Source: Leucosporidium creatinivorum
Lineage: Eukaryota; Basidiomycota; Microbotryomycetes; Leucosporidiales; Leucosporidiaceae
Direction of reading: 5' to 3'
Assembly (NCBI GenBank): GCA_001600635.1
Contig: BCKL01000017.1
Coordinates: 328,003-392,002 of the forward strand
DNA length: 64,000 nt
The notes under the pieces were generated by a model. The model was not told the origin of the DNA, did not search any database, and was given only the letters and a program-made list of their open reading frames with translations. Shown piece after piece: positions 29,510-56,334 of the stretch. The position numbers and the translations under genes were made by a program. Each line of letters opens with the position of its first letter. Within the stretch, counting starts at the first letter, position 1.

Positions 29510-30760
29510 CTAATGTAGCTCGAACTCGACACCCGCCTGCTCCGCCACATCCTCCACATCCGCGAGGTCCTGCTCGGTCCAGATTTGAAGGAGCGTTTCG
29601 GGGACGGAAAGGTGCTTGAGATTCGTCGTGCCGGCGATGTAGTGCTTCACCGAGGCAACTCCGACGGGGAGAAGCGGGCACGCTTCTCTCGGATAGCGAG
29701 GCTCCTCCGCTCTCAGTGTGAGCGATTCGAGAGTAGGGAGATCGGCGAGGAGATGAAAGAGGATGTCGAGGTCGAGCCCTCGAGGCGCTATCGTTAGGCG
29801 TCGAATCGAAGCGAGGCTTTTGACGAAGGCGTGGACGGTTTCGGCGGGAAGTGGCTGCCAAGTCGTCCTCCCGACGAGCTCTAGTTCGACGAGACGGTGA
29901 GCCGCAGAAGCGAGCTGTTCAACTAGGCGGCCCCCAGGCCAGTCGACGTCACCGACGCGTACAGTGCGAAGAGATCCTAGCGAGCTGTGGACAAGTCGAG
30001 GCGCCGCATCCAGGGAGCGAGGGTTGGTAATTTCGAGATGCTGCAGTTGCGACGAGGTCGGTCTCGGCTTCGACCACCTTCCGCCGCCTGCGCCGAGCTC
30101 GTGAACTCTCAGTTTGAGCTGGAGCGACGGTGCGACGAGCTTTCGTAGCTTGAGAAGATTGGTGAAGATGCTGAGGGAGATCCAGATTAGTTGGCGCGCT
30201 CGGGCAAGGGACGCCGAGACTCACTGCTCAAACGACGCGGTGCCCAGGAGGATGTTGCCGTACATCTCGAGCTCGACTAGGTTCCTAGATGAAGTGATGG
30301 CATTCCTCAATCCTTGTCCGAGGCTGGCGTACACACCAGCGAAGCCCTTCTCCAGCGTCAGGTGGAGACGCTCGAGGATGGGGCAGGTGAGGAGTAAATC
30401 GCCGATGAGCTTGGAGGATTTGGCGGTCGTCTCGTTGCCGACGCTGATGACAAGAGCTCGGACGCCTTCCGGCCTGAAGGTGAACTCCTCGTTGAGCAGC
30501 GCCGTCGAGAGTCGATGCGCCTGCTTTGAGCCATGGACGACGAGTTCCCTCTCGCTAGCAGCGACGGTCCACCGATGCTTGCACACGTTCGAAACAGTGA
30601 GCCTCGTCTTCTGACGCTCGAGCGGCTTCAGATCCTGCAGCGCGAGGTCGAGGATCTGCGTCAACGTCTCGGTGGGAAGAGAAGCGGCGGGCGAGTCTGT
30701 AGGCTGTCGAGGGCGGGCGTAGGGTGTAAGAGGAGCTTGTTGAGCAGCTTGATCTTCCAT
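29510..30760 (-). CDS. F-box-like / leucine-rich-repeat-like protein, copy 1
   Basis: Starts at ATG 30760 (MEDQAAQQAPLTPYARPRQP). An F-box-like segment follows: 'SLPTETLTQILDLALQDLKP', then VCKHRWTVAASERELVVHG. After it come LRR-like lines (LIGDLLLTCPILERLHLTLE, LRNAITSSRNLVELEMYGN). One short intron (about 30171-30224) splits ...FEH|IFTNLLKLRKLVAP. Exon 2 continues with LRR-like units and ends DVAEQAGVEFELH-stop at 29510-29512. About 400 residues. Two relatives lie at 40016 and 41731 on the other strand, and their similarity extends about 90 bases upstream of the ATG, so promoter and gene were copied together. By analogy it would act as a substrate adaptor of an SCF ubiquitin ligase; that is inference, as the F-box match is modest. 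Confidence 0.7.
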
Positions 30761-31250
30761 GCTGAACTTTGAGGCGACGAGGCGAAGAGAGCGATAAACG
30801 AGAAGTGAAGCGTAGGAGGACAAGGGGCGTCTGAGCGAATCGAGCTGAGAAGAGCAACGAGGTCCGAGCTCAAAATTGGAGGCGAAGGTGGCCGGGAGGG
30901 TGCTGGCTAGCTCCAGAGCTGTAGTCGGCAAAGATGGATTCCTGTATCCAAGCCGGCGCCTCAAGCGGTTCAACTCGCTTCGCGATTCTCCTTCTCATCG
31001 CCGAGCACTCGCTTCGAGCGCTTCTCAGCTGCGTTGGACTGAAGCGAAGCCGCCGTCATCCCAAGCACGAGCGAGCCCATCTGAGATCGTCTGCCCTTCT
31101 TGCATATCGTTTCCGAAGCACCACTGCTGTCCTTTCTCCGAGTTGCCGCTGTCCACGGCGCACCTTTTGCTCTCTCCCGAGTCGCCAGCTGCACGCCGCT
31201 CAAGACTGCTGAGGATGACCCAATTGCACCCTATCAGATGTGCTACCCCG
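30761..31250. other. Intergenic: F-box-like copy 1 promoter / syntaxin 3' flank
   Basis: Contains the conserved leader shared by the three F-box-like copies (about 30761-30850 read on the minus strand, CGCCTCGTCGCCTCAAAG) and, at 31105-31250, the syntaxin 3' flank that was copied to 28.4 kb. No gene. Confidence 0.5.
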
Positions 31251-39142: not shown

Positions 39143-40015
39143 TGGATTCGAAGCGAGAGAGGGAGCGCGAGCTGGGTGGGGAGTTGTTGAGGGAATGCGC
39201 TGCTCTTGAGAGGGAAGTAAGGCCGGGGGAGGGCAGCTGAAGAGGTGCAGAAGTTGCTGCTAGGCTGTCCTGCGACGAACGAGCGGCGGAGGCGAGCAAA
39301 CGGCGAGAGAGCTGGATCAAGAGCGAGTGGGAGGAGTGAGAGCCTGAAGCCAGAGAGAGTACGGAGGTGAGCCGAGAGGAACTGCCTTCGCATCTGTGTA
39401 TCTTCCGCTGTTGCAGCTGTTATTCGCCAGAAAATAATGTATACTGCTCGCCCAGCTCCCACTGTACCTCATTACACGCGCTCGATCTCCAGCCGGCTTT
39501 CCCCAGCGCCGAGGTGTCTCAGCTTAGCTAGCTGATGCCATGCTCTTCGGAGGCGAGTCATCGCCGGGGTGGTCAGAACAAAACGTAGTTCAGAGCCACC
39601 CGAGTCTGTCACCGAATAGCTTGGAGCATCGCACAGGGCACAAAATCACCTCGGCCGAGCCCTCAGCTCGCTGCAGACCTACAGGACCGTCTGTAGGAGC
39701 TATTTCAGCTCTCGACAGGCTCTACGGAGTGTCAACGATGTTCGAGATGTCCCGTAGCTGTCCAAGCAGCACCCAGTCCACCGCCCGCCTGCTCGGCGAT
39801 GCTTGCGAAGAGCGCCGAGCACGAATCGAGCTCTGGCAGCCTCTGGATAGTGCGGTGCGTAAATAGGGCAGTTGTCTAATGAGACGTGAAGATCTGTAGT
39901 GAAGCAGCCTACTACTTGCGATCCCTCTTGAGCTCGCCTCGTGCCGCGCCCCTTGTCCTCCTACGCTTCACTTCTCGTTTCTCGCTCTCTTCGCCTCGTC
40001 GCCTCAAAGCTCAGC
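39143..40015. other. Divergent intergenic region, phosphatase / F-box-like copy 2
   Basis: About 870 bases. The last 90 bases are the leader conserved among the F-box-like copies (CTTGTCCTCCTACGCTTCACTTCTCG). Around 39480-39800 there are CGCCGA/TCGGCG elements and CTACAGG. An open frame at 39540 has no motif and is not called. Confidence 0.45.
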
Positions 40016-41290
40016 ATGGAAGCTCAAGCTACTCAACAAGCTCCTCCTACACCTTACGCCCGCCCGCAACAACTTACAGACTCGCCCGCCGCTTCCCTTC
40101 CCACCGAGACGTTGACGCAGATCCTCGACCTTGCGCTGCAGGATCTCAAGCCGCTGGAGCGTCATAAGACCAGGATCGCACTCTCCAAAGTCTGCCAGCA
40201 ATGGTGGACCGTCGCTGCTAGCGAGAGGGAGCTCGTCGTCCAAGGATCGAAACAAGCTGGAAGACTCGCTGAGGCGTTGCTGCAGGCCGACACGGTGGAG
40301 AGACAGGAGGCGGTCAAGTCCCTCGTAATTGAACTGGATGGCATTACCGACAAGAGTGATGCCAAACCCGCGGCGGACCTCCTTCTCTGCTGCCCGAAGC
40401 TCGAGCGCCTCTCCCTCACCTTCACCGGCGGACTCAACCCTGACGCCAAATACCGGATGCTCGGAAAGCATCTGAGAGACGCTCTCACTACGTGTAATAG
40501 CCTGACGGAGCTCGAGCTGCTGGGAAATGTAATCGTGCGCCCGAACGATTTCGACAGGTGAGCCAACTTTCGACGTTCGCACCTCGCCTAGGCCTAATCG
40601 GCCTTCCTTGCTGACGCTTCGGCACTCAGCATCATAAACCAGATGCCATCCCTTCGCAAGCTGATCGTACCAGCGGCCGACCTGCGCACCGTCTGGGCAT
40701 ACGAGCACCTCTCGCCGGCTCTCAACTCGCTGGAGACCCTTCATATCAGCATCACCGACTACACTACACCCAAGGACATCGCACAAATGCTTATCAACTC
40801 GTCCCTCACGACCATCAAGTCCGTCCGCCTTGGACTCGACCGCCGGGGGCGCTTCACCTTGGAGGAGGTCGCCCGAGCGCTGCTGCCCGCTGCAGGTCAG
40901 CTACTCGACCTCGAGCTTCCAGAGACCCTCCCAGATCCAGCCTTCAACGGCCCTCCTCTCGACTTCCCGCTCCTCATTTCACGCCTCTCCAGCATTCGCA
41001 GCCTCTCCCTCGGCATCGTGGGCTACGCCATGGACGAGCTCTTCACCATCCTAACGCCTCTCGATACCCTCGAGTCTCTCACCTTGAGAGCTCCCTCTTG
41101 GTTTCCCCCCGGTTTTCCCAAGCCGATTATCAGCTACACGCCTACTCTCGACTACGTCAGGTCGGCGAGCCGTGGGAAGTTCAAGACCCTTTCGCTCCCC
41201 GGGAGTTTGGTACGAGATTGGACTGAAGCGGAGATAGACGATGTCAGGCGCGTTTCTAGGGAATTCGGAGTAGAGCTCGGTATTCATTGA
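40016..41290 (+). CDS. F-box-like / leucine-rich-repeat-like protein, copy 2
   Basis: ATG 40016 (MEAQATQQAPPTPYARPQQ). Same plan as the 29510-30760 gene: F-box-like 'SLPTETLTQILDLALQDLKP', then SKVCQQWWTVAASERELVVQ and LRR-like lines (LLLCCPKLERLSLTFTGG, LRDALTTCNSLTELELLGNV). A 72-base intron (40558-40629) sits at the same place as in copy 1. Exon 2 has 'MPSLRKLIVPAADLRTVWAY', 'GQLLDLELPETLPDPAFN' and 'LDTLESLTLRAPSWFPPGF', and ends FGVELGIH-stop at 41288-41290. About 400 residues, intact. Exon 1 is much closer to copies 1 and 3 than exon 2 is, so the LRR-like half is evolving fast or has been exchanged. An SCF adaptor role is only an analogy. Confidence 0.72.
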
Positions 41291-41730
41291 TTGTGAGAGT
41301 CAGACTGAGGTGAGCTTGCCTTTCCCGTTTCCAACGCCGAGCCCCACTGACTTCCTCTTCGCCTTGCACAGATCGCATTGACCGTCGTGGAGCTGCTCGA
41401 GATGGATGCAATGCTTTAATAGACGGGTGCGTGTGTTGTGACTGCCAATCGAACCCGGAAAGACTCGACTCGAGAGCTCGGCGATGAGCAAGCAACCTGC
41501 GAAGCGAGCCGGGTATCTTGTGAGCCTCGCTCGGATACAGCAGGAGACGTTGTTGTAGATCATCAACAGGCTCTGCATCTCACGCCCAATCTACAAGGCA
41601 CCTTCACCGCCCGCTTCTGAGCTTGGACCTCTTCCTCTTCTTAGCTCGTCTCGACTCTCGCGCCCCTTGTCTTCCTACGCTTCACTCGCTCGTTTCTCGC
41701 TCGTTTCGCCTCATCACTTCAAAGGTCAGC
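41291..41730. other. Spacer between F-box-like copies 2 and 3
   Basis: About 440 bases. The right-hand 90 bases repeat the copied leader (CCTACGCTTCACT...CGCCTCATCACTTCAAAG). A GTGAGC...CTGACTTCC...CACAG pair near 41309-41371 looks like an intron in the 3' flank of copy 2. Confidence 0.45.
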
Positions 41731-43540
41731 ATGGAAGATCAAGCTACTCAACAAGCTCCTCCTACACCCTACGCCTGCCCTCAACTACCTACAGACTCGC
41801 CCGCCGCTTCCCTTCCCACCGAGACGTTGACGCAGATCCTCGACCTCGCGCTGCAGGATCTCGAGCCGCTGGAGCGTAGCGCCCAAGACGGACGAGCTCG
41901 TGGTCCACGGCTCAAACCAGGCGCATCGACTCTCGAAGGCGCTGCTCAAAGAGGAGTTCGCCTTCAGGCAAGAAGCGATCCGAGCCCTCGTCGTCAGTGT
42001 CGGCAACGAGACGAGCGATAAAGCTTCCAAGCTGGTAGGAGACGTCCTCCTCAGCTGTCCCCTCCTCGAGCGACTCCACCTCACCATCAACAAGGCCTTC
42101 TCCGGCGAGTTTGCCACGCTCGGCAAGGGCTTAAGGGATGCTATCGCCTCGTCTGACACGCTGATTGAGCTCGAGGTGTATGGCATGATCATGCTCGGCC
42201 GTGTGTCCTTTGAGCAGTGCGCCGTTGGTTCGTTCGGCTAGCGTTGCTCAAGAAGAAGCTAGCTGTATATGATCAAGTTGCAGGTCGAAGTTCACGGAGG
42301 CTACGAGATGGGAAGCGGTGACTACGTAAACTGATGTAACAAAGGGATGGTGGGCGGGGACCAAAAGTCCTCCGAAGTCATTCTGAGAGAAGCGACGAGG
42401 GTTAGGCGGGAGCTCAGAGCGCGAGGGCTGTACTAAGCTCACCTGAGAGAAGCGACGAGGTAGCGGTATTAAGAGAAGGTCTTATTGAGCTGCTACTGCT
42501 GCTGTCTCTCTGCGAGTGGGAAGGGAGAGGGTTAGGCGGGAGAGCTCTGCGCTGCAAAGCTTCTACGACGTACGGAGCTCGCTGAGCGTGTAGTGCTACC
42601 GGGGAAGGTGGTAAGCATGCTGTACAATGTACGGCAGCCGAGGAGGAGGCTTACAGATGCGAGACCGAAAGGAACGATGAAGAGCACCGCGACGAGCGAA
42701 GGAGAAAGCGCTCGCCTGGCGGCTTGAGAAGTCAGCTCTGAGGGTACTGCGCAACCACGCTCTCAAAGCTGCCTTCTCGTCTTCAACAATTCTTTAGCTC
42801 TGTTAACGCTTGCCAAAGAACCTATTGCTCTGCTCCGCAAGCTCCGCCCGCTAAGGATAATCCTCTTCACCGACGATTGAGCTTACGCCCTCCTTCCCTC
42901 CTCCAGCATCTTCAGCAATCTACCCAACTTGAGGAAGATCGTTGCTCCCACGCTCATCGTCAAGTCCTACATCTACGGCTATGGGATCGGCGCCACCTAC
43001 CCGAACAAACTTGAGCACCTCGAAATGTCTGCTGGATCTTCGAAAGGAGGCGCTTCAGCGCTCATCAAGCCAGCCAAAGGATCTCTCACCTTGGTTCGAG
43101 TCGGTATCGTGGAAGGTCCCCAAAGTGTGGTCTCCGACCTGTTGCCGGCTGCGCCCCGCCTCGTTGATCTCGAGCTGCTCGGAGGACCAGCTTGGCCCCA
43201 CTCCAACCCCAACTATCTCACATCGATCGTCAAAGCTCTTTCTTCCATCCGTCACCTTTCAATCGCTCTCTCTGGGTACGAGATCGCCACCCTCTTCGAC
43301 CTCCTCGTCGACCTCGCCACTCTGGAGTCGTGCACGCTGAGCAGCAAGGCTGGTCCGAACGATCGAATCCGCGCGCTGCAGGTTATAAGTCCCTCAGAAG
43401 TTGCCACCTACATCTACACCGCCCAGCAGCTCGCGCAGCTCAAGCTTCCCAAAGCGCTAAACTCGTGCTGGACCGAAGAGCAGCTCGGGAATGTCGAAAG
43501 GGCGGCGAAGAAGGCGGGAGTCAGGTTCAAGTTGCGCTAG
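41731..43540 (+). pseudogene. F-box-like / LRR-like gene, copy 3, damaged
   Basis: ATG 41731 (MEDQATQQAPPTPYACPQLP) with the F-box-like line 'SLPTETLTQILDLALQDLEP' intact. Right after LEPLER about 50 bases present in copies 1 and 2 (coding for the KVCxxWWTVAASE part) are missing. This shifts the frame, and the following family sequence (ELVVHGSNQAHRLSKALLKE, LVGDVLLSCPLLERLHLTIN) is in another frame. Exon 1 ends at 42216, then a 690-base intron, then exon 2 (from 42907), which is open to KKAGVRFKLR-stop at 43540 ('LPNLRKIVAPTLIVKSYIYG', 'APRLVDLELLGGPAWPHSN'). One clear lesion plus an enlarged intron suggest a recently inactivated gene. A sequencing error is less likely for a 50-base loss. 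A shorter product from an internal ATG is possible. Confidence 0.75.
42217..42906 (+). other. Enlarged intron of copy 3, probably containing an insertion of about 620 bases
   Basis: The intron at this position is about 55-72 bases in the other two copies but 690 here. Inside are direct repeats: CTGAGAGAAGCGACGAGG at about 42382 and 42443, and GAGGGTTAGGCGGGAG at about 42397 and 42527. No terminal inverted repeats, transposase frame or poly-A tail were found, so the origin is unknown. Confidence 0.55.
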
Positions 43541-44684
43541 GAGGCTTCAGAGTCAAGCGGTGAGCTTCTCGACCCCCCTCCCCGCGCTATAGGCCCTTAG
43601 ACTGACTTGAGGCCTGTCTCGGCGCCGGTTGTTAGCTTCGGGTTCAAGTCGGGGACAGACTGCTGCAGATTGGCGTGCTCAGAGGAGGAAGAGGAAAAGA
43701 GCTTTGACAGTGATGGTACGAGACCCGCTTTTGAAACGATGAGTGCTTCGATGTATGACGTTGAGGGCGGAGGCGAAGCGAGCGAGAGAAGCGAACGCCG
43801 ACGGGCCGTCCGAGGCCTTGCATAACGCGGGAAGTTCCCAAGTCAAGTCAGCCAGAGCTGAAGTGATGTCTCTTAGGGATGAAGGGCAGTCGGGAGCTGT
43901 TTAGCTTCTTGCTCAGCCTGGATCGAGCAGCGCCCGTCTCCTTCGTGCTCGGTCGGCGTCCGTGTAGTAAAGGAGGCGTCGCGAGACTCCGAAGACGCGG
44001 CTCTGGGTTAATACAGATCACTTTTCCCCCCTCCGACTGACGAGGACCACAGTAGACCCACAGAACGAGCCAGCAGAAAGCACGCTCACTCGGCCTGCGA
44101 GCTCGCCCTGGGCCTGCTCTCTCGAGACGGCCTCTCATCTCTCTTGGCTTCCTCCCCTTCTCCTGCTCATCTCAAGTCGAATCGCTGCAGCAGGCTGGAC
44201 TACAGCTCGACTAGAAGCTCTACAGCCTACTGCCCAGGTTCTCTGGCCGCAGGCTTACACTCTACAGCTCACAAGAGAGCGTGAAGGCGACTGCTCCGCT
44301 CCTTCGCTCAGCTGGAGGTCATCGCTCTTCGTCTGGACGCCCTACAGCAGCTCGGTCGCCTACAACTCACTCGGCACACCTCCAACATCCCCGAAATGCG
44401 ATTGCTCCCCGCCATCCCTTCGTGCTCTTCTACAGCTCCCTGAGGCGACTGGGAGACGCGCGCCGAGGCAGCTCGAATGGCACCCTGCTCAATCGACTAC
44501 AGCACCGAGCCCTGCAGCACCGAGACAGCTGCATAACGACCAGCAAACGACACCGCCGGGTGAAGCAGGAATCTAAGCGCTGAGAAGGGCAAGGCAAGGG
44601 CGAGGCCAGCAGGCGAGAGGGTCTGCCTCCTGCCGTTCACTGCTCGCCGTCTCTTTCGCCCGTCGCTGTATACCAATACTCAAG
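43541..44684. other. Large 5' flank of the Bim1-like gene; CTACAG-rich
   Basis: More than 1.1 kb without a supported gene. The portion 44190-44560 contains at least six sense CTACAG(C) motifs (for example 44200, 44220, 44260, 44341, 44429, 44508). The final 40 bases (CTGTATACCAATACTCAAG) lead into the ATG at 44685. Confidence 0.5.
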
Positions 44685-45521
44685 ATGAAGTCTTTCCTCG
44701 CTCTCGCTGCTCTCGTACCCCTCGCCGCCGCCCACTTCACCCTCGACTACCCTACCTCGCGCGGTTTCGACGAGGATATTGAGCCGAGTGAGTTCTAAGC
44801 AGCGCATCCCCAAGCTAGCACACAGCTAAAGCTCGGCTTTACCTCTACAGACTTCTGCGGAGGCTTCCCCGACCCCTCGGCCGTGCGCCAGCCCTTCCCC
44901 CTCAGCGGCTCGGCTCCCATCCTCATCGACTCGCATCACCCTTCCGCTCAAGTCGGCATCATCCTCTCGCTCGACAGCAACCCTACCTCCTTTGACAACT
45001 TCACTACCACCAGCTCGGGCGATGCCATCCCCATGCTGCTTCCCTTCGGCCAGATTACTGGATCCGGAGAGGTGCGTCTTGGTTCTTGCTCGGTTGAGGG
45101 AGATGCAGGCTGACCTGTTGCCCTACAGTTCTGCTTCAACGTCGATGTCGCTTCTCTCGGTCTCAAGAACATCACCAACGGCACCGTAGCCACCATTCAG
45201 TGAGTTTTCGGCTCGGCTCGGCTGTCGTCTTCGCTCTCNCTGACCNTNCTNNTNCGCTNNAGGGTCGAGTTCAACGGTGGAGATGGCCTCCTCCTCCAGT
45301 GCACCGACGTCGTCCTCGTCTCCGACTACACTGTCCCCTCCAACGTCACTTGCGCCAATGCTACGGCCACGGACTCCGCCTCGAAGTCGGCCAGCAGCTC
45401 GGCGTCGGCTACCGGAGCTGTAGGATCCGCTACCTCGACTCCCGCCAGTGGAGCTAGCAAGGTCGGAGCTGCTGTTGGAGCTGTTCTTGCTGTCGTCGGA
45501 GCTGGCGTGCTCATGCTATAG
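44685..45521 (+). CDS. Bim1-like (X325, histidine-brace) copper-binding GPI-anchored surface protein
   Basis: A 16-residue signal peptide (MKSFLALAALVPLAAA) leaves His as the mature N terminus: HFTLDYPTSRGFDEDIEPN. A mature His1 followed by a second His site ('ILIDSHHPSAQVGIILSL') is the copper-site pattern of the X325/Bim1 group, LPMO-like folds that bind Cu without cutting sugars. Four Cys (FCGGF, FCFNVD, LLQCTDV, VTCANA) can pair. The C-terminal part is Ser/Ala/Thr-rich and ends in a hydrophobic tail, VGAAVGAVLAVVGAGVLML-stop, as for a GPI signal. About 210 residues, three introns; the third has several N bases at its acceptor. In Cryptococcus, Bim1 works with Ctr1 in copper uptake. Here a Ctr gene lies tail to tail 163 bases away. 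Confidence 0.87.
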
Positions 45522-45684
45522 GGAGGAGAGGGGATCGTCGCTAGGCTTCGGAGGCTGAATAGTGCAAAAAGGACACAGCAGTAATCGCAATCTCTTCGTT
45601 CGCTGTACAATAGTCTGTCGTCGGCCGAGAAGAGTATAGACAAGAAAGCTACATTACCGACCAGCGGCTTCTCCAACTCCTCCC

Positions 45685-46387
45685 TCAGTAGTGCAAGCCG
45701 TCTCCTGCTCCCGCATGTGTACTCCACCGACCAAACAGCAGCTCCCCACTCATCAGCCCGACGATGCTGGCGATAAAGAACCACGCCGAGTAGGACATGA
45801 CTGCCAGCATCAGCAGGTAGCCGACGAACGCTTGGAGGCCGAAGAGGGCTGCTCGGGGGGCGTCGATAGACCAGAGGAAGGGAGGAGCCTGCTTGAACTT
45901 GGCAGCGACGGTGGGTGGGCGATCATTGATAGTCGAGGAAGGGGTGGAAGAGCCTTTGGCGAAGGACTTGTCCTCGATGAGGTCGAGTCGGATGGCTTGA
46001 CGGCGGAGGGCGAGGGATTCGGCCCAGGATTGCTCGGCGGAGGAGCGGACAGCGGAGAGGAGGCGAGAGAAAATGGCGAGGAAGAAGAGGCCTATTGAGG
46101 CGCCTGCTGTGGCGCCGGCCGAAGTGGGTGTCCAGGAGGTGAACCAGAGGTTGGAAGCGCCGAGTCTGGGTAGGTCGGAGCGAGCGTCAGCGCGTGAGAT
46201 AGAGCTGAGGAATGGGAGAGCGCACGCTGTAGTGAACGAGGTCATCATCATTGTCGAAGTGGTCGAATTGGTCGTGCCCGTGTCCTGTCGGGAGGGAGAG
46301 ATAAAGTTGAGAACGGGACGGCTCGGAGCTGTGACGGTTGTAGCTCACCATCGAGGACATGTCCATGCTACCGTGACTGTGCGCCAT
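45685..46387 (-). CDS. Ctr-family high-affinity copper transporter
   Basis: Exon 1 (46387-46349) encodes MAHSHGSMDMSSM, and the next exon adds DTGTTNSTTSTMMMTSFTTA: a Met-rich extracellular N terminus for Cu(I). After the second intron, 'LGASNLWFTSWTPTSAGAT' begins TM1. A cytosolic loop (RLDLIEDKSFAKGSSTPSST) follows. TM2 has MxxxM ('YLLMLAVMSYSAWFF') and TM3 has GxxxG (VGLMSGELLFG), the pore and packing signatures of Ctr1. It ends THAGAGDGLHY-stop at 45685-45687. About 200 residues, a normal size; it would work as a trimer in the plasma membrane. A good donor at about 46473 and an acceptor (CTCACTAG) five bases before the ATG suggest a 5'-UTR intron. It faces the Bim1-like gene and is divergent from the reductase. 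Confidence 0.93.
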
Positions 46388-46866
46388 TGTGCTCTAGTGA
46401 GCGAGCGAGCTGGTTCCTAGTTAACGAGAAGGATGAGCGCGGCCAGACGAACAATGAGGCGAGCTACTCACCAGTGGCGGGGTGTAGTCAAATCGCAGAG
46501 CACAAGCAAGCAGCAGACGATCCTGTAAACTGTTCTGGAGCAGACGGCGCAGCTGTAGCGGACGGATAAGGGCGCGAGACGAGAGCCGAGCAAGTCGAGG
46601 AGGACGAGGCAGGAAGGAGAGAGCAACTCGGCTCAAATCGCCAGCTCTGTCTGCTTCCTACCGTCTCCTACCGTTCACTTGTACTCGTCTCTTCTCACCT
46701 TCAACACTCGCTCCGGCTGCTCTCCTACAGCCCTACAACTTATCAGAGGCTACACACATCAGCAACAAGCCGCACCCGGCTCTCCAGCGCAGCTCAGGCG
46801 AGAGAGCAGCTTCTCTCTGTAGCCTCATCGGCGGGTCATTGAGCAGCGTAGGGAAGAGCTAGTAAC
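46388..46866. promoter_or_regulatory. Shared divergent promoter of the Ctr transporter and the metalloreductase
   Basis: 479 bases between the two starts. It contains a probable 5'-UTR intron for Ctr (about 46393-46473 on the minus strand) and CTACAG motifs on both sides (GCAGCTGTAGC near 46546; CTCCTACAGCCCTACAAC near 46725). A single TGATAA GATA-type site lies near 46740 (as TTATCAG). Copper or iron co-regulation is expected from the gene pair but not proven by these sites. Confidence 0.5.
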
Positions 46867-49731
46867 ATGTCGTGCAAGAACGCAGCGGGAGCTCCGATCC
46901 CATGCAGTGGATGGGCAGGTGAGTCGACCCATCCCCTGGTCGCGCGCAGCTGTTCGGCTGGCTAGCTCGGTGTGGCTTCCCCGTCGGGGTGGAGGCTAGG
47001 TTGGTCAGAGATGTGATACAGAGCCTGCTCGACTTCCACCGAGCTATATGTAGCAGACTCCGACGACCGAGCCGACACGGGCGCTCTCGGGACATGGCCA
47101 CTCTTCACGAACGCGATTGACTGTANGCTGACCTCNGCTGCTCACCTGCACAGTCTACGACTCGTATGTCACGGACCCACGCTACCAGCGATACTTCAGC
47201 ATCGCTTGGACCTGCCTCTTCGCCCTCGCCTTCCTCTTCACCCTCCCCAGCATCCTCGGCTGGCTGAGATCGGGACGATGGAGAGAAGGATCTCTCGCTG
47301 GTCGGCTCGGGGTGTATGAAGATATAAGTGGAGGATACCGTCAGATCGACTCGACCGAGCCAGCTCCTTCTACCGTCAAGCGGAGTCGACTGCCTCGGCC
47401 CATCCTCGCGATTTCTGCCGCCGTCAAGTCGCTGGCTCTGGCGACTCCTCCTTTCCCATCTTTCCTTTCCCTCGACCGTATCCCTCTCCTCCGAACTCGC
47501 CGAGCCGCGTCGTGCCATCCTACGCGCAACCTCCTCCCCTTCTCATTCGGCACCCTCCTTATCACCCTCCTCATCCCCGCCTTCTTCCTCGCCACCCTCC
47601 TACCCGAGTCCGAGCTTCGCACCAACCCCAACAGGTTCGGATTTCTCGCCCTCGCCGCCATCCCGCCCACCTTCGTCCTCTCCTCAAAGAACGGCGCCGT
47701 TCAGTGGCTGCTCGGCAAGGGCTGGACCAGCGTCAACTTTCTTCATCGCTGGCTGGGAAGAATGATGGTGCTACTGGTGTTGCTTCACTTCTACTTCTGG
47801 ACGATTCAGGTGAGTTGCTGCCTCTTGAGTCTCTCGAGTTCGGCTCGGCTCACGCTGACCTCTCGCCTCTACCACAGTACGCTCCCTCGCATCAAGTGAC
47901 CGAGTTCCTGTCCGGCACCAAAGAGCAACGCGGTATCGGAGCCCTCGTCTTCCTCCTCATCATCGCCATCTCGTCGGCTGGACCCCTTCGCCGCTTCTCC
48001 TACCCCGCCTTCTTTATCCTGCACTATGTCGGCATCATCGGCTTCCTCGTCTTCGTCAACAAGCACACCATCTACGCTCAAGGATGGGCCACCTACTCGG
48101 TCGTCGGCATCTACGGCCTCGACATTCTCGGTCGGCTAGCGGGCCTGCGAGTGCGCTACGTTGAGGTCGAGGCGATGGAGGGTGGGGTGGTGCGCGTAGC
48201 GATGCGAGGGTTACATGGAGGATGGAGGTGTGTTTCTCACGCCCCTCGCTGGTCGCCTTTCACTGACCTCTCATGACCTCGCAGAGCTGGCCAACACGTC
48301 TCCCTTCGACTCTTCTTCACCCCTCCCTCTCCTTCCATCTTCTCCCTCTTCCGCTCCTTCGAAGCACATCCCTTCAGCATCTCCAACGCTCCTCCCTCCC
48401 ACGGCATCCTTAACGCCTCCTCGCCCGAGCGCGGCGCCGAACTCTTCGTTCGCTCGTGCGGCGAGGGAAGCTGGACGGGCGATCTCTATGATACGGCTCT
48501 TCTCGGTCGGAGGGTTGCTCAAGCTCAAGCGGATGAGCTGGCACGCGAGGGAGGCGATGGAAGGAGGAAGACGATGCACATGCTCGCTCTCGTCGAGGGC
48601 CCGTACGGAGGCTTGGGCACCTTCGTAGAGGTCNAGCAGGAGACGGTGTTGCTCGTCGCTGGAGGTAGTGGCATGAGCTTTACGCTGGGTGTGCTGGACG
48701 AGGTGCTGGGAAAGAGGAAGCAGAACGGTCGAGGAGGCAAGATTGAGGTCGTTTGGGCGGTCAGGGACAAGGGTGCGCNCTCGGCTTTCGTTTGCTCTTC
48801 TCGCTGTTGCGATGCTGACANNTCGANTCTGCAGCACAAATCGCTTGGTTCGAGGAGCCCCTTCGCACTCTCATCGACTCGGTCTCCTCCATTCCCAANC
48901 TNANNATCACCCTCCGCATNTTCCTCACTTGCGATCCGACTCTCACGACCGAGCCCTCTTCTGCTTCTCCCAACACCTCGACTTACCCTCCATCGCCCAC
49001 CTCTACCAGCTTCGCACCACTCCCTCACACCCAACTCATCTACACCCGCCCTCACCTTCCCACCCTCGTGCACGACACCCTCGCCGCCGCTCTCGCTCCC
49101 TGTGGCAACTGCTATCCCATCTGCCGCTGCGGAGAGATTGACGGCGGTGGAATCTGCGCCAACGATGAGGAGGAGTGCTGTGGAGGTTCGGGACCGGCCG
49201 ACGGGATCGAGCTGCTCAGCGGAGGCAGCCAGGAGGAGGAGAGGAAGGGCGAGAAGGAGTCGTTCGATGAGGTGCCGGTGCTTTCGAAGAGCAAAAGCTG
49301 CTGCTCGCCTCCCTCGGACTCCCCCAAGGAGGACGACGAGATCATCGAGCTCGCGCCTTCGACCTCGGCGCCCGCCTGCTGCTCGAGCAAGCCTGGCAAG
49401 GGAGCCGAGGCGGAGAAGGCGCCCGCTTGCGGAGGAGGATGCTGTGCAGGGACCGGGGGAGCGTGCTGCAGTGGTGGAGTCGAGGGAGTGAGAGAGCCGA
49501 AGGAGGTCGGTCCAGTGAGGGTGAGGACGGGAGGTATGGCGGTCGTCGTCTGCGGGCCAGGCAACATGATCGTGAGTGACTGCTTCTGGCTTCGAGCTCT
49601 TTGTAGAGCTCTTCAATGACTCCTTCTCCTCTCTATAGGCCGAGATGCGAAACGCCGTCGCCCGAGTCCCCATCGCTAAGCAGGCGAGGGTCGGCGGCAT
49701 CGACCTGCACTCGGAGCACTTCTTGCTATAG
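46867..49731 (+). CDS. FRE-type ferric/cupric reductase with an internal Cys-rich metal-binding-like insert
   Basis: Plasma-membrane flavocytochrome that reduces Fe(III)/Cu(II) for uptake. Exon 1 is short (46867-46918, MSCKNAAGAPIPCSGWA), followed by a 235-base intron. Membrane part: 'SIAWTCLFALAFLFTLPSIL', heme-ligand pairs in 'FLHRWLGRMMVLLVLLHFYF' and 'FFILHYVGIIGFLVFVNKHT'. FAD site: FEAHPFSISNAP; NADPH sites: LLVAGGSGMSFTLGVL and VVVCGPGNM near the end. Stop at 49729-49731 after LHSEHFLL. Between the NADPH motifs lies an insert (49101-49480) with 16 Cys, starting CGNCYPICRCG, with ECCGG, KSCCSPP, PACCSSK and CGGGCCAGTGGACCSGG. Several N bases occur in exons (48634, 48899-48920). About 800 residues. 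Confidence 0.92.
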
Positions 49732-50702: not shown

Positions 50703-53700
50703 ATGCGCGCCACCTCCCTCCTTACGGGGGCGAGTCTCCTTCTCGCCTCCTTCGCCGAAGCTCATTGGCACTCTACGCCCAAGCCTCACGCCGGTCTGGT
50801 CAAGGCCAAGCGCTCTGCTCTCGTCACTTGCCACGCTAAGCAGTACAAGTACAGTAAGTTACTGTTGACTCTCCCCCGGCTCGAGAACGGTGCTGATCTC
50901 CTTCCCCTCTCCTCTTCTCCTCCGCCTCGCTTTCATCGCTACAGAGAACGCCTGCCACGAGTGCACCGACAAGCACGCCCTCACCTGCGACTACAAGGGC
51001 CCCCTCACCTGCAGCTCCGGCCTGTACCTCAGGCCTTATGGCGGCCGAGCCTGTGTGAAGGCTGCAGCATGCGGTGACAAGTGGTTCGCCAACTCGAAGA
51101 CCATGAACTGCGAGCGCTGCGCCGACGGCAACGCTCGTACTTGCTCGAGTGACGGCAAGACAGCTCTATCTTGGTGAGCGCCGAGCTCGCTCTTTTCTCG
51201 CCCATCCGTCGCTGACCTCGTCTACCATATACAGCGCTGCTCGCTTCCTTCACAAGGGCAAGTGCGTAACTCAGTCCAAATGCCCTTCGAACTACTTTGC
51301 AAACTCCCGCTGTACGTCCAGGCTCTCGAGCTCGGCGACGAAGCTTTGCTCATTACCGCTCTCTTTACAGCCCGTACCTGCCAACAATGCGACGACTCTG
51401 ACGCCATCAAGTGCTTCCCTGCTTCTACTGCTCTTTCCTGGTACGCCTGTGCTTTAGGTCTCGAGGTCTCTCATGCTGGGCGCTGACTGTCAATCGCCGA
51501 GCAGCTCGACCAAGTACCTCTCCAACGGCAAATGCATGGGCTCATGCCCTTCCGGTTCATACACGGATAAGAAGAATCACGTTTGCGTTCCCTGCAAGGA
51601 CTCGAAAGCGTCCAGCTGTACCGCCGACCAGGCTTTGACTTGGTGAGCTCGCTCTCTCTCATCGCCGAGCGTGCATTGCTGACCTCTTGCATCAGCGCCA
51701 ACGGATTCCTCTACAAGGGAGCTTGCGTCAGCACCTGTCCCAGCAAGTACTTTGAAGATTCTGCCAGTGAGTCGCCACGGGTCGACCGACGGAGCTGGGG
51801 TAGCGCCGAGCGCTTTACTGACCCGTTCTCCCACTTCCGTAGCCAGCGCCTGCGTTGTATGCTCCAACCCAGGAGCCACTCGGTGCACTGGCACTGCTGT
51901 CGATACAGCTTGGTGATTGTCGACCTTGGCTAAGCTCCAGCTCGCCGACTGACCCGCTGCTCCTCCTCGCAGCGGAATCAACGACGTCAACGAGCACACC
52001 TACCTCGACACCTCGACTAGCACGTGCGTGCGACCGCAAGATTGTCCTACAGGATCGTATCCTCAAGCCGGTGCGTTCTTCTAAACCTTTGTTCGGCGCT
52101 CGGCGCTCGGCGCTCGGGACTGATGCTTGCGATTTCGACCACAGCCTCGTCAACTTGCGCTTTGTGCCCCGGATCCGGAGCTGCTTCTTGTGATGCTACG
52201 GGTGTGACTCTCAGCTGGTACGTCGCCCCGTCTTCCCAATCGCGAGCGTTTCCTCGTTGCAGAAGCCCCGCCAGCGCCGAAGCTGACTGCTGCTCTCCAC
52301 AGCTCCACCGGCTTCCTCAGCGGTACCGACTGCATCGCGACTTGCCCCATCGGTTACTTTGGCGACGACGAGGACAAGGTCTGCAAGCCCTGCAGGGACG
52401 GAGTCACCACCTGCGATGCCAGCGCCGAGCTTTCCTGCGGCAAGACGTCCAAGGGGATTGAGACCTACCTGGACATCTCCGCCGCCCGCTGCGTCGAGTC
52501 TTGCTCCGATGGCACCTTTGCCGATGCCGGTACGCCCTCCAGGTGGCTCTCGTCGAGGTCCTAGCTGACCCGCTTCGGCTCAACCAGATTCGTTCACGTG
52601 CGCTACTTGCCCCGGATTTGGGGCTCTTACCTGCGACTCGACCGGTCAGACTACGAGTTGCTCTGTCGGCCTGCTGTGGAAGGGAGCTTGCTTGGAGAGC
52701 TGCCCCGGTATGAGCTACGCTTCAACCGGTGAGCTTCCTGACTTCCTCTCGGTGCCGAATCCACGCTGATTGTTCTTCTCTTCTCTACAGTCTCGACGTG
52801 TGCCGCTTGCCCTGACGGAGCCGTGACTTGCGACGCCGACAAGAGCCTCTCTTGGTGAGTTTCGGTTCGGCTCTCTGGCTTCTTCGGCGCTGACCGATCG
52901 TCGCTCCTTCCACAGCGGCTTCAACGCTGCTGGATCCGCCACCTACCTCGCTTCGGGACGCTGTGTTGAGCAGTGCCCCTCGAGGACCTACGCCGATACT
53001 AGTGAGCCTTCCTCCTGCCCGCGGGCTGCACCGAGCGCTGACCGTTCGTGCTTCTCCGGTCTCGCTAGTCACCTCCGAGTGCTTGAGCTGCGCTGACGGC
53101 GCGCTCACCTGCGCTTCTGCTGATGTGGCCCTCTCGTGCGGCAAGAACTCGAACGGCGTCGCGACCTTCCTCTCCTCGGGCTCTTGTGTGTTCGCCGAGT
53201 CATGCACCCCTGGAACCTTCGCCAGCACTGGCGAGTCTCTTACCTTCCCTGCAGAAGACTTGAAACTAACCTCTCGTTATACAGACGACTCGACCTGCGC
53301 CTCCTGCGCTTCTGGAGCGGCTACTTGCACTTCGGCGACCGTTGCACTCACCTGGTTAGTCTCTTCCCCGTTCTCTCGAGACGAAGCCGTTTGCTGACTC
53401 TCTACATCCACTGCAGCGAGACTGGACTCTTCCTCACGGCTGCGGGAGCCTGCGTCCGAACGTGCCCTGTCTCAACATACCCCAAATCGGCGCCCGCTTC
53501 TCTTCGCCGCAGGGCTCTCACCTCGTCGGCCATCTCGACCTGTGCTCCTTGTGAGGATGGCGCCACGAAGTGCACCGCTACCTACAGCACCGCTTGGTGA
53601 GCTCTTTGACTCTCGAAAGCGACGTCTCAAGGGCGAAAGCTGACATCGACTTCTCGGTGCTCGGCTCTCGCAGCGGATTGAACAAGGCCGGCACGCAAAC

Positions 53701-56334
53701 CTACCTTCTCAACGGGCACTGTGTCTCACGCAAAACTTGTCCCGAATGGTCGTACGCCGACGACGTGACATTTGTCTGCCGCCGCTGCTCGACCATCTCG
53801 CCTGGTTCTATGACTTGCGACGCCAAGGGCGCTCTTACCTGGTGAGCTAGAGGCTTCGCTGATCCTTCGAGAGCTCGGCTAATCTCTCGCTCCATCCTTT
53901 TCCACTCGCAGCGGAACCAAGTCGGCCGGCGCTCAGCTCTACGTTACGCCCAACCAGAACTGCTTGCTTCCTTCGCAATGTCCTTCGAACACTTGGCCTG
54001 ACGCCTGTAAGCTTACGCTTGGCTTCAGACTGCCACCGAGCCAAGCTAACTCTCGCTTTCCAGCCTCAAACTCGTGCAAGCTCTGCGACGACGGAACGAC
54101 CCAGTGCTCTGGAAACGGAGCCGGAAAAGCTCTCGCTTGGTGAGCAGTCTCTCTTCGTGTCTCTGAGCGATACTGATTACCTTTTCGTTCCGTAGCGGTC
54201 GCACCTCGGCCGGTGTCTCGGTCTTCCTCACCCCTTCCAACACCTGCTCGCCCTCTTGCCCTTCCACCTTCTTCGCCGACGACGCCACTTCCACCTGCAT
54301 GGCCTGCGCCGAAGGAGAGACGACGTGCAAGAGTAGCGGACCTGGCGACGCTCTCACCTGCGGCCTCAACAAGAAGGGCGTTCAGACCTACCTCACCCCT
54401 TCCAAAGACTGCAGCGCTTCTTGCCCTGCCGCCTACTTTGGAGATGCTCAGTCGCTCACTTGCGTTCAATGTGACGCTGGTGAAGCGTCCTGTACCTTCG
54501 CTGGACCTGGCGGAGCTACATCATGGTGCGTTCGCCGTCTTTATCGGCGCCGAACTCGGCTGACCTCCTCCTCTTTCTACAGTGCCGAGAATGATGCTGG
54601 CGAGCAGCTCTACCTCTCCGGCGGCGACTGCATTTCTTCCTCGGATTGTCCTGTATCCAGCTTCGTCAGCGAGAGTCCGTGTTCCGTGCTCGACTTCCGT
54701 CCTCGACCGAGGCGTCCACATAGACGAGCTAACATCCTCCTCCCTCTCCTATAGGCGACCACACCTGCTCGCCTTGCGCCGATGGAGCCCTCATCTGCAC
54801 CTCTCTGACCGACGCAAGCCTTTGGTACGCTTGAAACCTCGCCAAGCTTTCCTCCGCCGCTCACGTTCTCTCCTCCGTTCACAGCGGCATCAACAAGGCC
54901 GGCAGGGCGGTCTATCTCGACGACGGGCTGTGTGTCGAGTATGGCTCGTGCGAGAGTGGTGAATTCCCCGACTCAGAGCTGTTCGTTTGCCGCGAGTGCG
55001 ATCCCATCATCGAGGTCGATGCCAAGACGTGCACTCCCAACGGTGCTTTGACTTGGTGAGTATCCGCTGTCTCGACTCCCTCTTCACCACTCCTCATCAC
55101 GTCTGTGTGGCTCTTGACCGAGTTGGGCCCCTCAAGCTGGAGTGCTGCCTCAATTTTGTAGCTCGGCGCTGATCTCCTCCCACTCTTTCTCTCCCTCTCT
55201 TCTCCGCCTCACACCTACACAGCAAGACTCTCTACGCTTTCGCCGGCGAGTGCATTCAAAAGAAGGATTGCCCTGCTGATACCTACGCAGATGACTCCGG
55301 TGCGCTCATTCCCCCGTTTTGCGAGCGCCGAGCTCCTTCGCTACGATCTCAAGGGCCACGCTGACCCTTGGAGCTCCCTACAGCCCGCATCTGCACTCCT
55401 TGCTCGTCCATCCAGCCCGGCTCTGCGACCTGCGACTTCTCCAAGGCCCTCAGCTGCCTCCCCGGATCCTTCCTCCTCAACGGAAAGTGCCCGACTTCAT
55501 GCCCCGATGGCTTCTACGCCGACTCGAGCAAGCATCAATGCGTCGCTTGCAGCACCGTTGACCCTGATGCTGCTACCGTACGTCTTCACTAGCGACCGAG
55601 CTCGAGGCCGAAGCTGACCTTCTCATCGCCGAACTGCAGTGCGCTAGCGCTTCCCTCGTCACCAGCTGGTAGGCTCTCCCATCGCGCTCAATCTTGCGTC
55701 CATCGAGCTAACTTGTTCTGCCCACTCTACAGCAAAACCCCCAGCAACGTCGCCGCCTTCAGCCAGTGCATCTCGGGCGACCGCTACGCCTTCTTCCCCA
55801 GTTCGTCCGGCTCTCTGCTCTTCCGCTGGCTCCCTTGCTGACCCGCTCTACACACAGACTTCTACTTTGACAATTGGTTCGACAACAGTGCCGATGCTGG
55901 CGGCTCCCGCGCCCTCTCCCCAGCCCAAGCCGCCATCCAGTGCTTCACTCGCTTCAACGCCGCCTGGGGCTTCTACTCGGGACAGCCGCACGTAGCTGGG
56001 TCGTTCTCCCATGCTCACTGCTCTCGCAACCCGGGACTGTACCAAGGTACCTTTGCTGGTGGAGCCGACATCGGATTCGCTATGATCAAGGGACTTAGTT
56101 GCAACATCGCTGCGGCCGCCAGTGAGTTCTCGTCGCTCGTCCTGTCGCTGAGGTGCTTACTGACCTTTTTGCTTTGTAGTCAACGCCAACGCCGCCGCTA
56201 CTGCTGCTTGCTTTGATGCTATCGTCTTGCCCGGCTCTTGCCGCCGTACGTCTCTTCGCCGAGGTCGCTTCTCCTTGCCTTGACTGACCTCCCATCGTCC
56301 CTCAGGTGTCGACAATGGTCAGCCATGCTACTAA
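50703..56334 (+). CDS. Giant secreted Cys-rich repeat protein C (about 20 furin-like modules)
   Basis: Signal peptide MRATSLLTGASLLLASFAEA with a KAKR site after it, then about 20 repeats of 40-55 residues. The pattern is CxxC-x(6-10)-C-x(6-10)-[LTS]C-...-G-x-C-x(3-5)-C-P, with a Tyr/Phe-Ala-Asp spacer. Examples: CVPCKDSKASSCTADQALTC, CKPCRDGVTTCDASAELSC, CATCPGFGALTCDSTGQTT. The unique C-terminal domain ('FYFDNWFDNSADAGG', AAIQCFTRFNAAWGFYSGQ, ATAACFDAIVLPGSCR) ends RVDNGQPCY-stop, like gene A at 8857. Roughly 1,150 residues and well over 100 Cys. At least 14 introns fall inside the Cys codon (TG|C or TG|T) of the same repeat position; others are phase 1 at the module border. A cell-wall, adhesion or metal-binding role is possible. 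Some exon joints (51780-51850, 53220-53290, 54660-54760) are uncertain. Confidence 0.85.

What the first reader, a model, noticed from the sequence alone, without database searches (positions are those of the whole stretch)
44685..49731. Three-gene copper capture, reduction and import cluster
A Bim1-like protein with a mature N-terminal His, a Ctr transporter with MxxxM/GxxxG and an FRE reductase lie within 5 kb. Bim1-like and Ctr are tail to tail (163 bases); Ctr and FRE share a 479-base divergent promoter. From known biology, FRE makes Cu(I), Ctr imports it, and Bim1 of Cryptococcus feeds copper to Ctr1. In the fungi I know these genes are not usually described as a physical cluster, so this may be a co-regulated copper regulon locus.
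Basis: partly seen in the sequence, partly recalled or inferred. Interest (0 to 1): 0.8.

Follow-up and report, generated by a model that had tools for sequence, protein, structure and literature searches.

The report
Duplicated fungal copper-uptake gene trio
Three neighbouring fungal genes that look built to catch, reduce and import copper are really there and exist twice as an inverted pair, but the same trio was already known side by side in the mould Aspergillus fumigatus, so this is a new example of a known kind of gene cluster.

Summary
A BIM1-like gene (44685-45521), a Ctr copper transporter on the other strand (45685-46387) and an FRE metalloreductase (46867-49731) splice to full proteins with Pfam matches of 2.6e-33 to 2.4e-24. 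The spacers are 163 and 479 bases, as reported.

A 6.9-kb inverted copy (93%) lies about 59 kb away on the same contig with all three frames open. Outside three blocks that look assembly-collapsed, dN/dS is 0.14 (Ctr) and 0.24 (FRE), so both copies appear selectively kept. The reductase carries a 137-residue insert with 16 cysteines, absent from the four paralogues whose matching region could be read.

The novelty claim fails. In A. fumigatus the adjacent trio Afu6g02800-02820 rises together on neutrophil exposure (PMC2481287), and Ctr-Fre neighbours with Mac1 sites are common (PMC7705104, PMC11563359). What remains of interest is a probable Pucciniomycotina host, the duplication and the cysteine-rich reductase. 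Co-regulation by copper is untested; promoter evidence is only suggestive.

The parts
44685..45521 (+). BIM1-like (X325) gene, exons 44685-44787, 44851-45071, 45129-45199, 45263-45521; signal peptide, mature N-terminal His17, second His64, hydrophobic GPI-type C-terminus
   Evidence: gene model; PF20238 E 4.5e-29; 6ibh E 2.1e-23 aligned from His17 to chain residue 1
45685..46387 (-). Ctr copper transporter, exons 46349-46387 and 45685-46284; Met/His-rich start MAHSHGSMDMSSM, MxxxM at 172, GxxxG at 189
   Evidence: PF04145 E 2.6e-33; motifs
46867..49731 (+). FRE-type metalloreductase, exons 46867-46918, 47154-47809, 47878-48227, 48285-48772, 48835-49571, 49639-49731; His 215/229/285/299, HPF 381, GPYG 458, CGPG 755
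   Evidence: exons, corrected start and protein; PF01794 E 2.4e-24 and PF08030 E 8.2e-12; motifs
49095..49505 (+). 137-residue Cys-rich insert (aa 603-739, 16 Cys, 5 CC pairs) in the NADPH-binding domain of the FRE
   Evidence: all 16 Cys kept in the second copy
46388..46866 (.). 479-base divergent spacer, presumed shared Ctr/FRE promoter; 8 TGCTC cores, 6 of 8 kept in copy A; no TTTGCTC(A)
44100..44684 (.). upstream region of the BIM1-like gene (bounds chosen by me); 6 CTACAGC and 7 TGCTC
42863..49731 (.). segment duplicated in inverted orientation at C17:304556-311416, 93.1% identity; the right breakpoint falls on the FRE stop codon
41470..42234 (.). further part of the inverted duplication (83.4%) in an F-box/LRR-like repeat family (named by eye)
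44873..45559 (.). identical block holding 8 of the 20 shared N; probably one collapsed consensus used in both copies (likewise 47010-47764 with 2 N and 48484-49035 with 10 N)

Best explanation
This is a surface copper-acquisition module present as two inverted copies. Shown: three intact, family-typical genes in one unit, duplicated and kept by purifying selection. Inferred from the families (general knowledge): FRE passes electrons from cytosolic NADPH across the membrane through its haems and reduces Cu(II) to Cu(I). The GPI-anchored BIM1-like protein captures copper at the wall with its histidine brace and hands it on. Ctr imports Cu(I) as a trimer. Inferred: a Cuf1/Mac1-type copper-fist regulator drives the three under copper shortage from the divergent Ctr/FRE promoter and the BIM1 promoter. 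The cytosolic 16-Cys insert of the FRE probably binds Cu(I), as a local buffer or as a brake on the reductase once copper enters.
For: Gene models and Pfam matches. The closest solved relative of the BIM1-like protein is the X325 copper protein 6ibh/6ibj, and His17 aligns with its mature residue 1. Ctr motifs and four FRE histidines spaced 14/56/14. Improbable adjacency. Inverted copy with all frames open, dS 0.11-0.17 outside collapsed blocks, dN/dS 0.14 for Ctr and 0.24 for FRE. Copper-fist exons at three places, one followed by a frame with Cys boxes such as CFGGDSCICGGCAH. TGCTC excess in the Ctr/FRE spacer: 8 against 2.2 expected, a level reached in 3 of 3069 background windows. The trio is adjacent and rises together in A. 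fumigatus. The P. destructans BIM1-like gene VC83_03095 and reductase gene VC83_03096, consecutive by number, both rise on copper withholding.
Against: No expression data here. In A. fumigatus copper itself does not move the trio as one: excess copper lowers ctrA2 (Afu6g02810) 4.85-fold, while the reductase Afu6g02820 is among genes more strongly upregulated in wild type than in an aceA mutant (PMC8425704, passages). The full Mac1/Cuf1 site TTTGCTC is absent from the Ctr/FRE spacer in both copies. The background windows are not promoters, and an unclustered BIM1-like locus on C6 reaches 8 TGCTC in a 585-base window overlapping its start. Only 3 of 6 CTACAGC upstream of BIM1 survive in copy A. 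Metal specificity of the FRE is unknown. Copper binding by the insert is composition only, and all 16 Cys staying unchanged is expected by chance about 9% of the time.
Confidence: 0.75

Rival explanations
1. The BIM1-like protein works mainly in the cell wall (chitin/chitosan integrity, development) and its place beside Ctr/FRE reflects shared regulation only.
For: Cbi1 mutants of Cryptococcus have cell wall changes (PMC9258870, passages); X325 members in other fungi are tied to development (PMC9695133, passages); one of three P. destructans BIM1-like genes, BLP1, barely responds to copper.
Against: Adjacency to Ctr and FRE here and probably in A. fumigatus; copper-withholding induction of two of three BIM1-like proteins in P. 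destructans.
Confidence: 0.15
2. The FRE is an iron reductase that happens to lie beside copper genes.
For: Many FREs serve iron (general knowledge); the genome has 11 other FRE-like loci, two of them below the family cut-off.
Against: Ctr-Fre adjacency with Mac1 sites recurs in other fungi; loss of the A. fumigatus trio did not reduce growth on iron-limited media (stated as data not shown).
Confidence: 0.12
3. The second copy is an assembly or haplotype artefact, so there is only one locus.
For: 20 N at the same aligned places in both copies, all inside the three longest identical runs, suggest that the assembler mixed the copies.
Against: Flanks beyond the FRE stop are unrelated. Diverged stretches with dN/dS well below 1 lie between the identical blocks. 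The stretch upstream of BIM1 differs by 14%.
Confidence: 0.1
4. Chance neighbours with no joint function.
For: Nothing in the calls directly; gene order in relatives was not tested.
Against: Chance about 4e-6 under simple assumptions; a like trio in an ascomycete.
Confidence: 0.03

Closest known systems
Aspergillus fumigatus Afu6g02800-Afu6g02810-Afu6g02820 (GPI-anchored protein, Ctr, metalloreductase)
   Same: [quoted passage not shown] That the GPI-anchored protein is the BIM1/Cbi1 homologue is my inference: PMC13208438 (passages) lists XP_747797.1 as A. fumigatus homologue of P. destructans BLP2 and XP_747796.1 in the row of PdCtr1a, which are consecutive accessions.
   Different: Ascomycete, one trio described. 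Relative orientations and any Cys-rich insert were not seen in the passages. Under excess copper the Ctr and reductase genes are reported to behave differently.
A. nidulans ctrA-freC; F. oxysporum ctr3-fre9 and ctr1b-fre12
   Same: Ctr and Fre genes adjacent with a shared promoter and Mac1 sites (PMC7705104, PMC11563359, passages)
   Different: No BIM1-like gene is named in those pairs in the passages read (the third F. oxysporum gene is called a SAM domain protein); TGCTCA-type sites are reported for F. oxysporum
Pseudogymnoascus destructans VC83_03095 (BLP2) and VC83_03096 (Fre)
   Same: BIM1-like and Fre genes with consecutive locus numbers, both induced by copper withholding (PMC12113139, passages)
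   Different: The Ctr genes have distant locus numbers (VC83_00191, VC83_04814); adjacency itself is inferred from the numbers
Cryptococcus neoformans Cbi1/Bim1 with Ctr1
   Same: GPI-anchored histidine-brace protein that aids Ctr1 copper uptake (PMC11509074, PMC9258870, PMC7924993, passages)
   Different: The passages read describe no physical cluster

Membership tests
BIM1/X325 (PF20238) | family profile match | tested here: met
   E 4.5e-29, 102.1 bits against cut-off 27
BIM1/X325 (PF20238) | N-terminal His after signal cleavage and second His of the brace | tested here: met
   His17 and His64 align with His1 and a His of 6ibh; cleavage is inferred, and that the aligned His is the brace ligand is inferred
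BIM1/X325 (PF20238) | Asp as further copper ligand | tested here: inconclusive
   Asp ligand reported for X325 (PMC10952591, passages).
BIM1/X325 (PF20238) | GPI anchor | tested here: inconclusive
   Ser/Thr-rich stretch and hydrophobic C-terminus in the translation; no GPI predictor run
BIM1/X325 (PF20238) | copper binding and delivery to Ctr | not testable with these tools
   needs protein work
Ctr (PF04145) | profile match, MxxxM and GxxxG | tested here: met
   E 2.6e-33; MLAVM 172, GLMSG 189
FRE metalloreductase | Ferric_reduct and NAD_binding_6 domains, two bis-His haem pairs, HPF FAD motif, NADPH motifs | tested here: met
   the His spacing rule and motif meanings are recalled
FRE metalloreductase | cupric rather than ferric activity | not testable with these tools
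   needs assay
BIM1-Ctr-Fre copper cluster (Afu6g02800-02820 type) | the three gene kinds adjacent | tested here: met
   and again in the inverted copy
BIM1-Ctr-Fre copper cluster (Afu6g02800-02820 type) | joint response to copper, driven by a copper-fist factor | tested here: inconclusive
   copper-fist exons present, 3 matches of 4 candidates; TGCTC cores in excess but no full site in the Ctr/FRE spacer; no expression data; not clear-cut in A. fumigatus either
BIM1-Ctr-Fre copper cluster (Afu6g02800-02820 type) | common descent with the ascomycete cluster | not tested
   no relatives held for this genome; no ascomycete protein was compared

The most novel reading that the evidence does not exclude
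The trio is an old or horizontally passed module shared by ascomycetes and Pucciniomycotina. In this fungus it was duplicated as a unit, and its reductase gained a metallothionein-like cytosolic insert that takes Cu(I) arriving through Ctr and throttles the reductase: a self-limiting copper gate.
Probability: 0.12. Interest if true: 0.65.

Novelty: new member of a known kind. Interest (0 to 1): 0.35.

Why it matters
If the trio is the same module as in Aspergillus, gene order for copper uptake has been kept or moved across the two great fungal groups, and the BIM1-Ctr partnership seen in Cryptococcus would be tied to a specific reductase. A retained inverted duplicate gives a natural pair for dosage and specialisation tests. 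The Cys-rich reductase gives a concrete, testable candidate for feedback between copper entry and copper reduction.

Tried and rejected
Rejected: that identical stretches between the copies are gene conversion. All 20 shared N lie in the three longest identical runs, which points to assembly collapse, so those blocks were left out of the selection estimate. This leaves only 41 BIM1 codons and 423 FRE codons; all 212 Ctr codons lie outside the blocks. Four further identical runs of 125-269 columns hold no N and were kept.

Tried: canonical copper sites in the promoters. TTTGCTC and TTTGCTCA: 0 in the Ctr/FRE spacer of both copies; 1 in the BIM1 upstream of copy A only. The S. pombe type pattern DWDDHGCTGD (recalled) is near expectation (1 and 1 against 0.68 and 0.83). 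CTACAGC stands out upstream of BIM1 (6; no background window of 3063 exceeds 4), but CTACAG is also the splice acceptor of 2 of the 3 BIM1 introns and only 3 of 6 sites are kept in copy A. I count it as unexplained.

Tried: another gene with the Cys-rich insert. The best hit outside the cluster, C11:138263 (E 0.0015), lies opposite long frames of another kind and was judged compositional by eye. A Cys score over 20 FRE-paralogue loci (about 3 kb each, some overlapping) was at most 10 against 14 for the two cluster loci. The stretch before the matching C-terminal motif was read by eye in four of the 11 other FRE-like loci (C28, C6, C20, C26) and lacks the insert; for the other seven it was not identified, so absence is not shown for all.

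Tried: clustering of paralogues. Profile searches put no FRE on C1, where the other Ctr lies, and the FRE on C6 lies about 384 kb from the other BIM1-like gene. A tblastn of the window proteins also found no FRE in the 9.0 and 7.0 kb read around them, but it missed the known Ctr and BIM1-like paralogues there too, so it is a weak test.

Solved structures: nothing for the N-terminal 469 residues of the FRE or for Ctr.

Their listings (titles and abstract starts; two searches listed 20 of 23 and 12 of 17) showed no report of this trio in a basidiomycete or of a Cys-rich FRE insert. The library lacks most subscription papers, among them the two founding BIM1/X325 papers.

Changed on rechecking: confidence lowered from 0.8 to 0.75 because of the A. 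fumigatus copper result.
Full report
Observation. Splicing gives a 217-residue BIM1-like protein (4 exons, 44685-45521, +), a 212-residue Ctr (2 exons, 45685-46387, -) and a 791-residue FRE with a few X from N (6 exons, 46867-49731, +). Pfam matches are PF20238 4.5e-29, PF04145 2.6e-33, PF01794 2.4e-24 and PF08030 8.2e-12. The only convincing solved relative of the BIM1-like protein is 6ibh/6ibi/6ibj, E 2.1e-23, aligned from His17 to chain residue 1; a review names 6IBJ as LaX325, of the same family as Bim1 (PMC7924993, passages). The Ctr has MLAVM at 172, GLMSG at 189 and a Met/His-rich start. The FRE has His 215, 229, 285 and 299, HPF 381, GPYG 458 and CGPG 755.

Second copy. Searching the genome that holds the window (27.7 Mb, 63 contigs) gave 3 Ctr matches of 5 candidates, 3 BIM1-like of 3, and 16 Ferric_reduct exon matches of 18 at 13 places, two of them the cluster copies and two others below the family cut-off. 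Two Ctr, two BIM1-like and two FRE genes belong to one inverted duplication: C17:304556-311416 against 377733-370865, 6.9 kb, 93.1%, with about 59 kb between the copies. In window coordinates it runs from 42863 to 49731, its right end falling on the FRE stop codon, and continues at lower identity (83.4%) into 41470-42234. Beyond the FRE stop the flanks are unrelated. In the second copy all three frames are open; one FRE intron there has a GC donor.

Assembly caution. All 20 N of the window copy occur at the same aligned positions in the other copy and lie in the three longest identical runs, 687, 755 and 552 columns. I read these runs as one consensus used twice, so identity there is uninformative. 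Outside them dS is 0.11 (BIM1, 41 codons), 0.17 (Ctr, 212 codons) and 0.16 (FRE, 423 codons), with dN/dS 0 (41 codons only), 0.14 and 0.24. Nine of the 11 Ctr residue differences crowd into residues 34-53; elsewhere Ctr dN/dS is 0.03. Both copies therefore look kept by selection as a unit.

Cys-rich reductase. Residues 603-739 of the FRE hold 16 Cys and 5 CC pairs within the NADPH-binding domain, shortly before the CGPG motif. Of 34 residue differences between the two FRE copies, 18 fall in this insert and none touches a Cys; that would happen by chance about 9% of the time. The crowding into the insert is overstated, because two FRE stretches are collapsed; dN/dS is 0.33 in the insert and 0.17 in the rest outside the collapsed blocks. 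Four of 11 paralogous loci had a C-terminal region that I could read, and lack the insert (C28, C6, C20, C26). Since this domain is cytosolic in the FRE family (general knowledge), a Cu(I) buffer or brake is the natural guess, but only a guess.

Regulation. Copper-fist exons lie at C19:91160 and, in a 636-bp duplication at 95%, at C24:428530 and 430147. The second C24 exon is followed by a frame with Cys boxes such as CFGGDSCICGGCAH, like those of Mac1/Cuf1 (recalled). The Ctr/FRE spacer has 8 TGCTC (2.2 expected; 3 of 3069 background windows, at 2 places, reach 8), 6 of them kept in copy A. The BIM1 upstream has 7 (50 of 3063 windows, at 15 places, reach that), 4 kept in copy A. Against this, no full TTTGCTC lies in the spacer and the background is not made of promoters. 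Of windows at unclustered loci, the 17 on the Ctr locus of C1 reach at most 4, but one of the 8 on the BIM1-like locus of C6 reaches 8. The regulatory claim stays plausible, not shown.

Prior knowledge. The trio is not new as an arrangement. In A. fumigatus a GPI-anchored protein gene, a Ctr gene and a metalloreductase gene are adjacent, rise together in hyphae exposed to normal relative to CGD neutrophils, and were deleted together; the deletion did not reduce growth on iron-limited media (PMC2481287, passages). That the GPI-anchored protein is BIM1-like is inferred from consecutive accessions (PMC13208438, passages). Against a simple copper regulon, excess copper lowers the Ctr gene there, whereas the reductase gene is among those more strongly upregulated in wild type than in an aceA mutant (PMC8425704, passages). 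Ctr-Fre neighbours with Mac1 sites are described in A. nidulans, where 110 of 127 screened species have the pair (PMC7705104, passages), and in F. oxysporum (PMC11563359, passages). P. destructans has a BIM1-like gene and a Fre gene with consecutive numbers, both induced by copper withholding (PMC12113139, passages). [quoted passage not shown]

Organism. One gene fragment tested, a phenylalanine ammonia-lyase exon, matches 1t6j/1t6p and 1y2m at 193 bits and the next entry at 98 bits.

Verdict. What is left to interest a specialist is its probable basidiomycete host, the retained inverted duplicate and the Cys-rich reductase.

Noticed in passing
window 39926-43540, also 30222-31011; C17:311418-315661: Several diverged copies of an F-box/LRR-like gene family flank both copies of the trio, a possible substrate for the inverted duplication; family named by eye, no Pfam scan run.
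   Followed up: partly
G000 C24:428092-428727 and 429709-430341: A stretch holding the copper-fist exon of a Cuf1/Mac1-like gene is duplicated in tandem, 636 bp at 95%, so the regulator locus also carries a duplication.
   Followed up: partly
window 44200-44503: Six CTACAGC copies in about 300 bases upstream of the BIM1-like gene, more than in any of 3063 background windows (max 4), only 3 of 6 kept in copy A.
   Followed up: partly
window 50703-51074: The next gene downstream seems to start with a signal peptide followed by AHWHSTPKPHA, a His-rich mature start; not identified.
   Followed up: no
window 52894-54751: Open frames with repeated Cys-rich motifs (CASCASGAATC, CMACAEGETTC), like a secreted or surface Cys-rich protein.
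   Followed up: no
Ctr of the window (45685-46387) against Ctr of copy A on C17, residues 34-53: 9 of the 11 residue differences between the two Ctr copies crowd into 20 residues of the N-terminal region (dN 0.24 there, 0.005 elsewhere), possibly ectodomain divergence.
   Followed up: partly
G000 C6:447946-448509 (L048): A distant BIM1-like gene stands alone; the nearest FRE match on C6 is about 384 kb away and no Ctr match lies on C6.
   Followed up: partly
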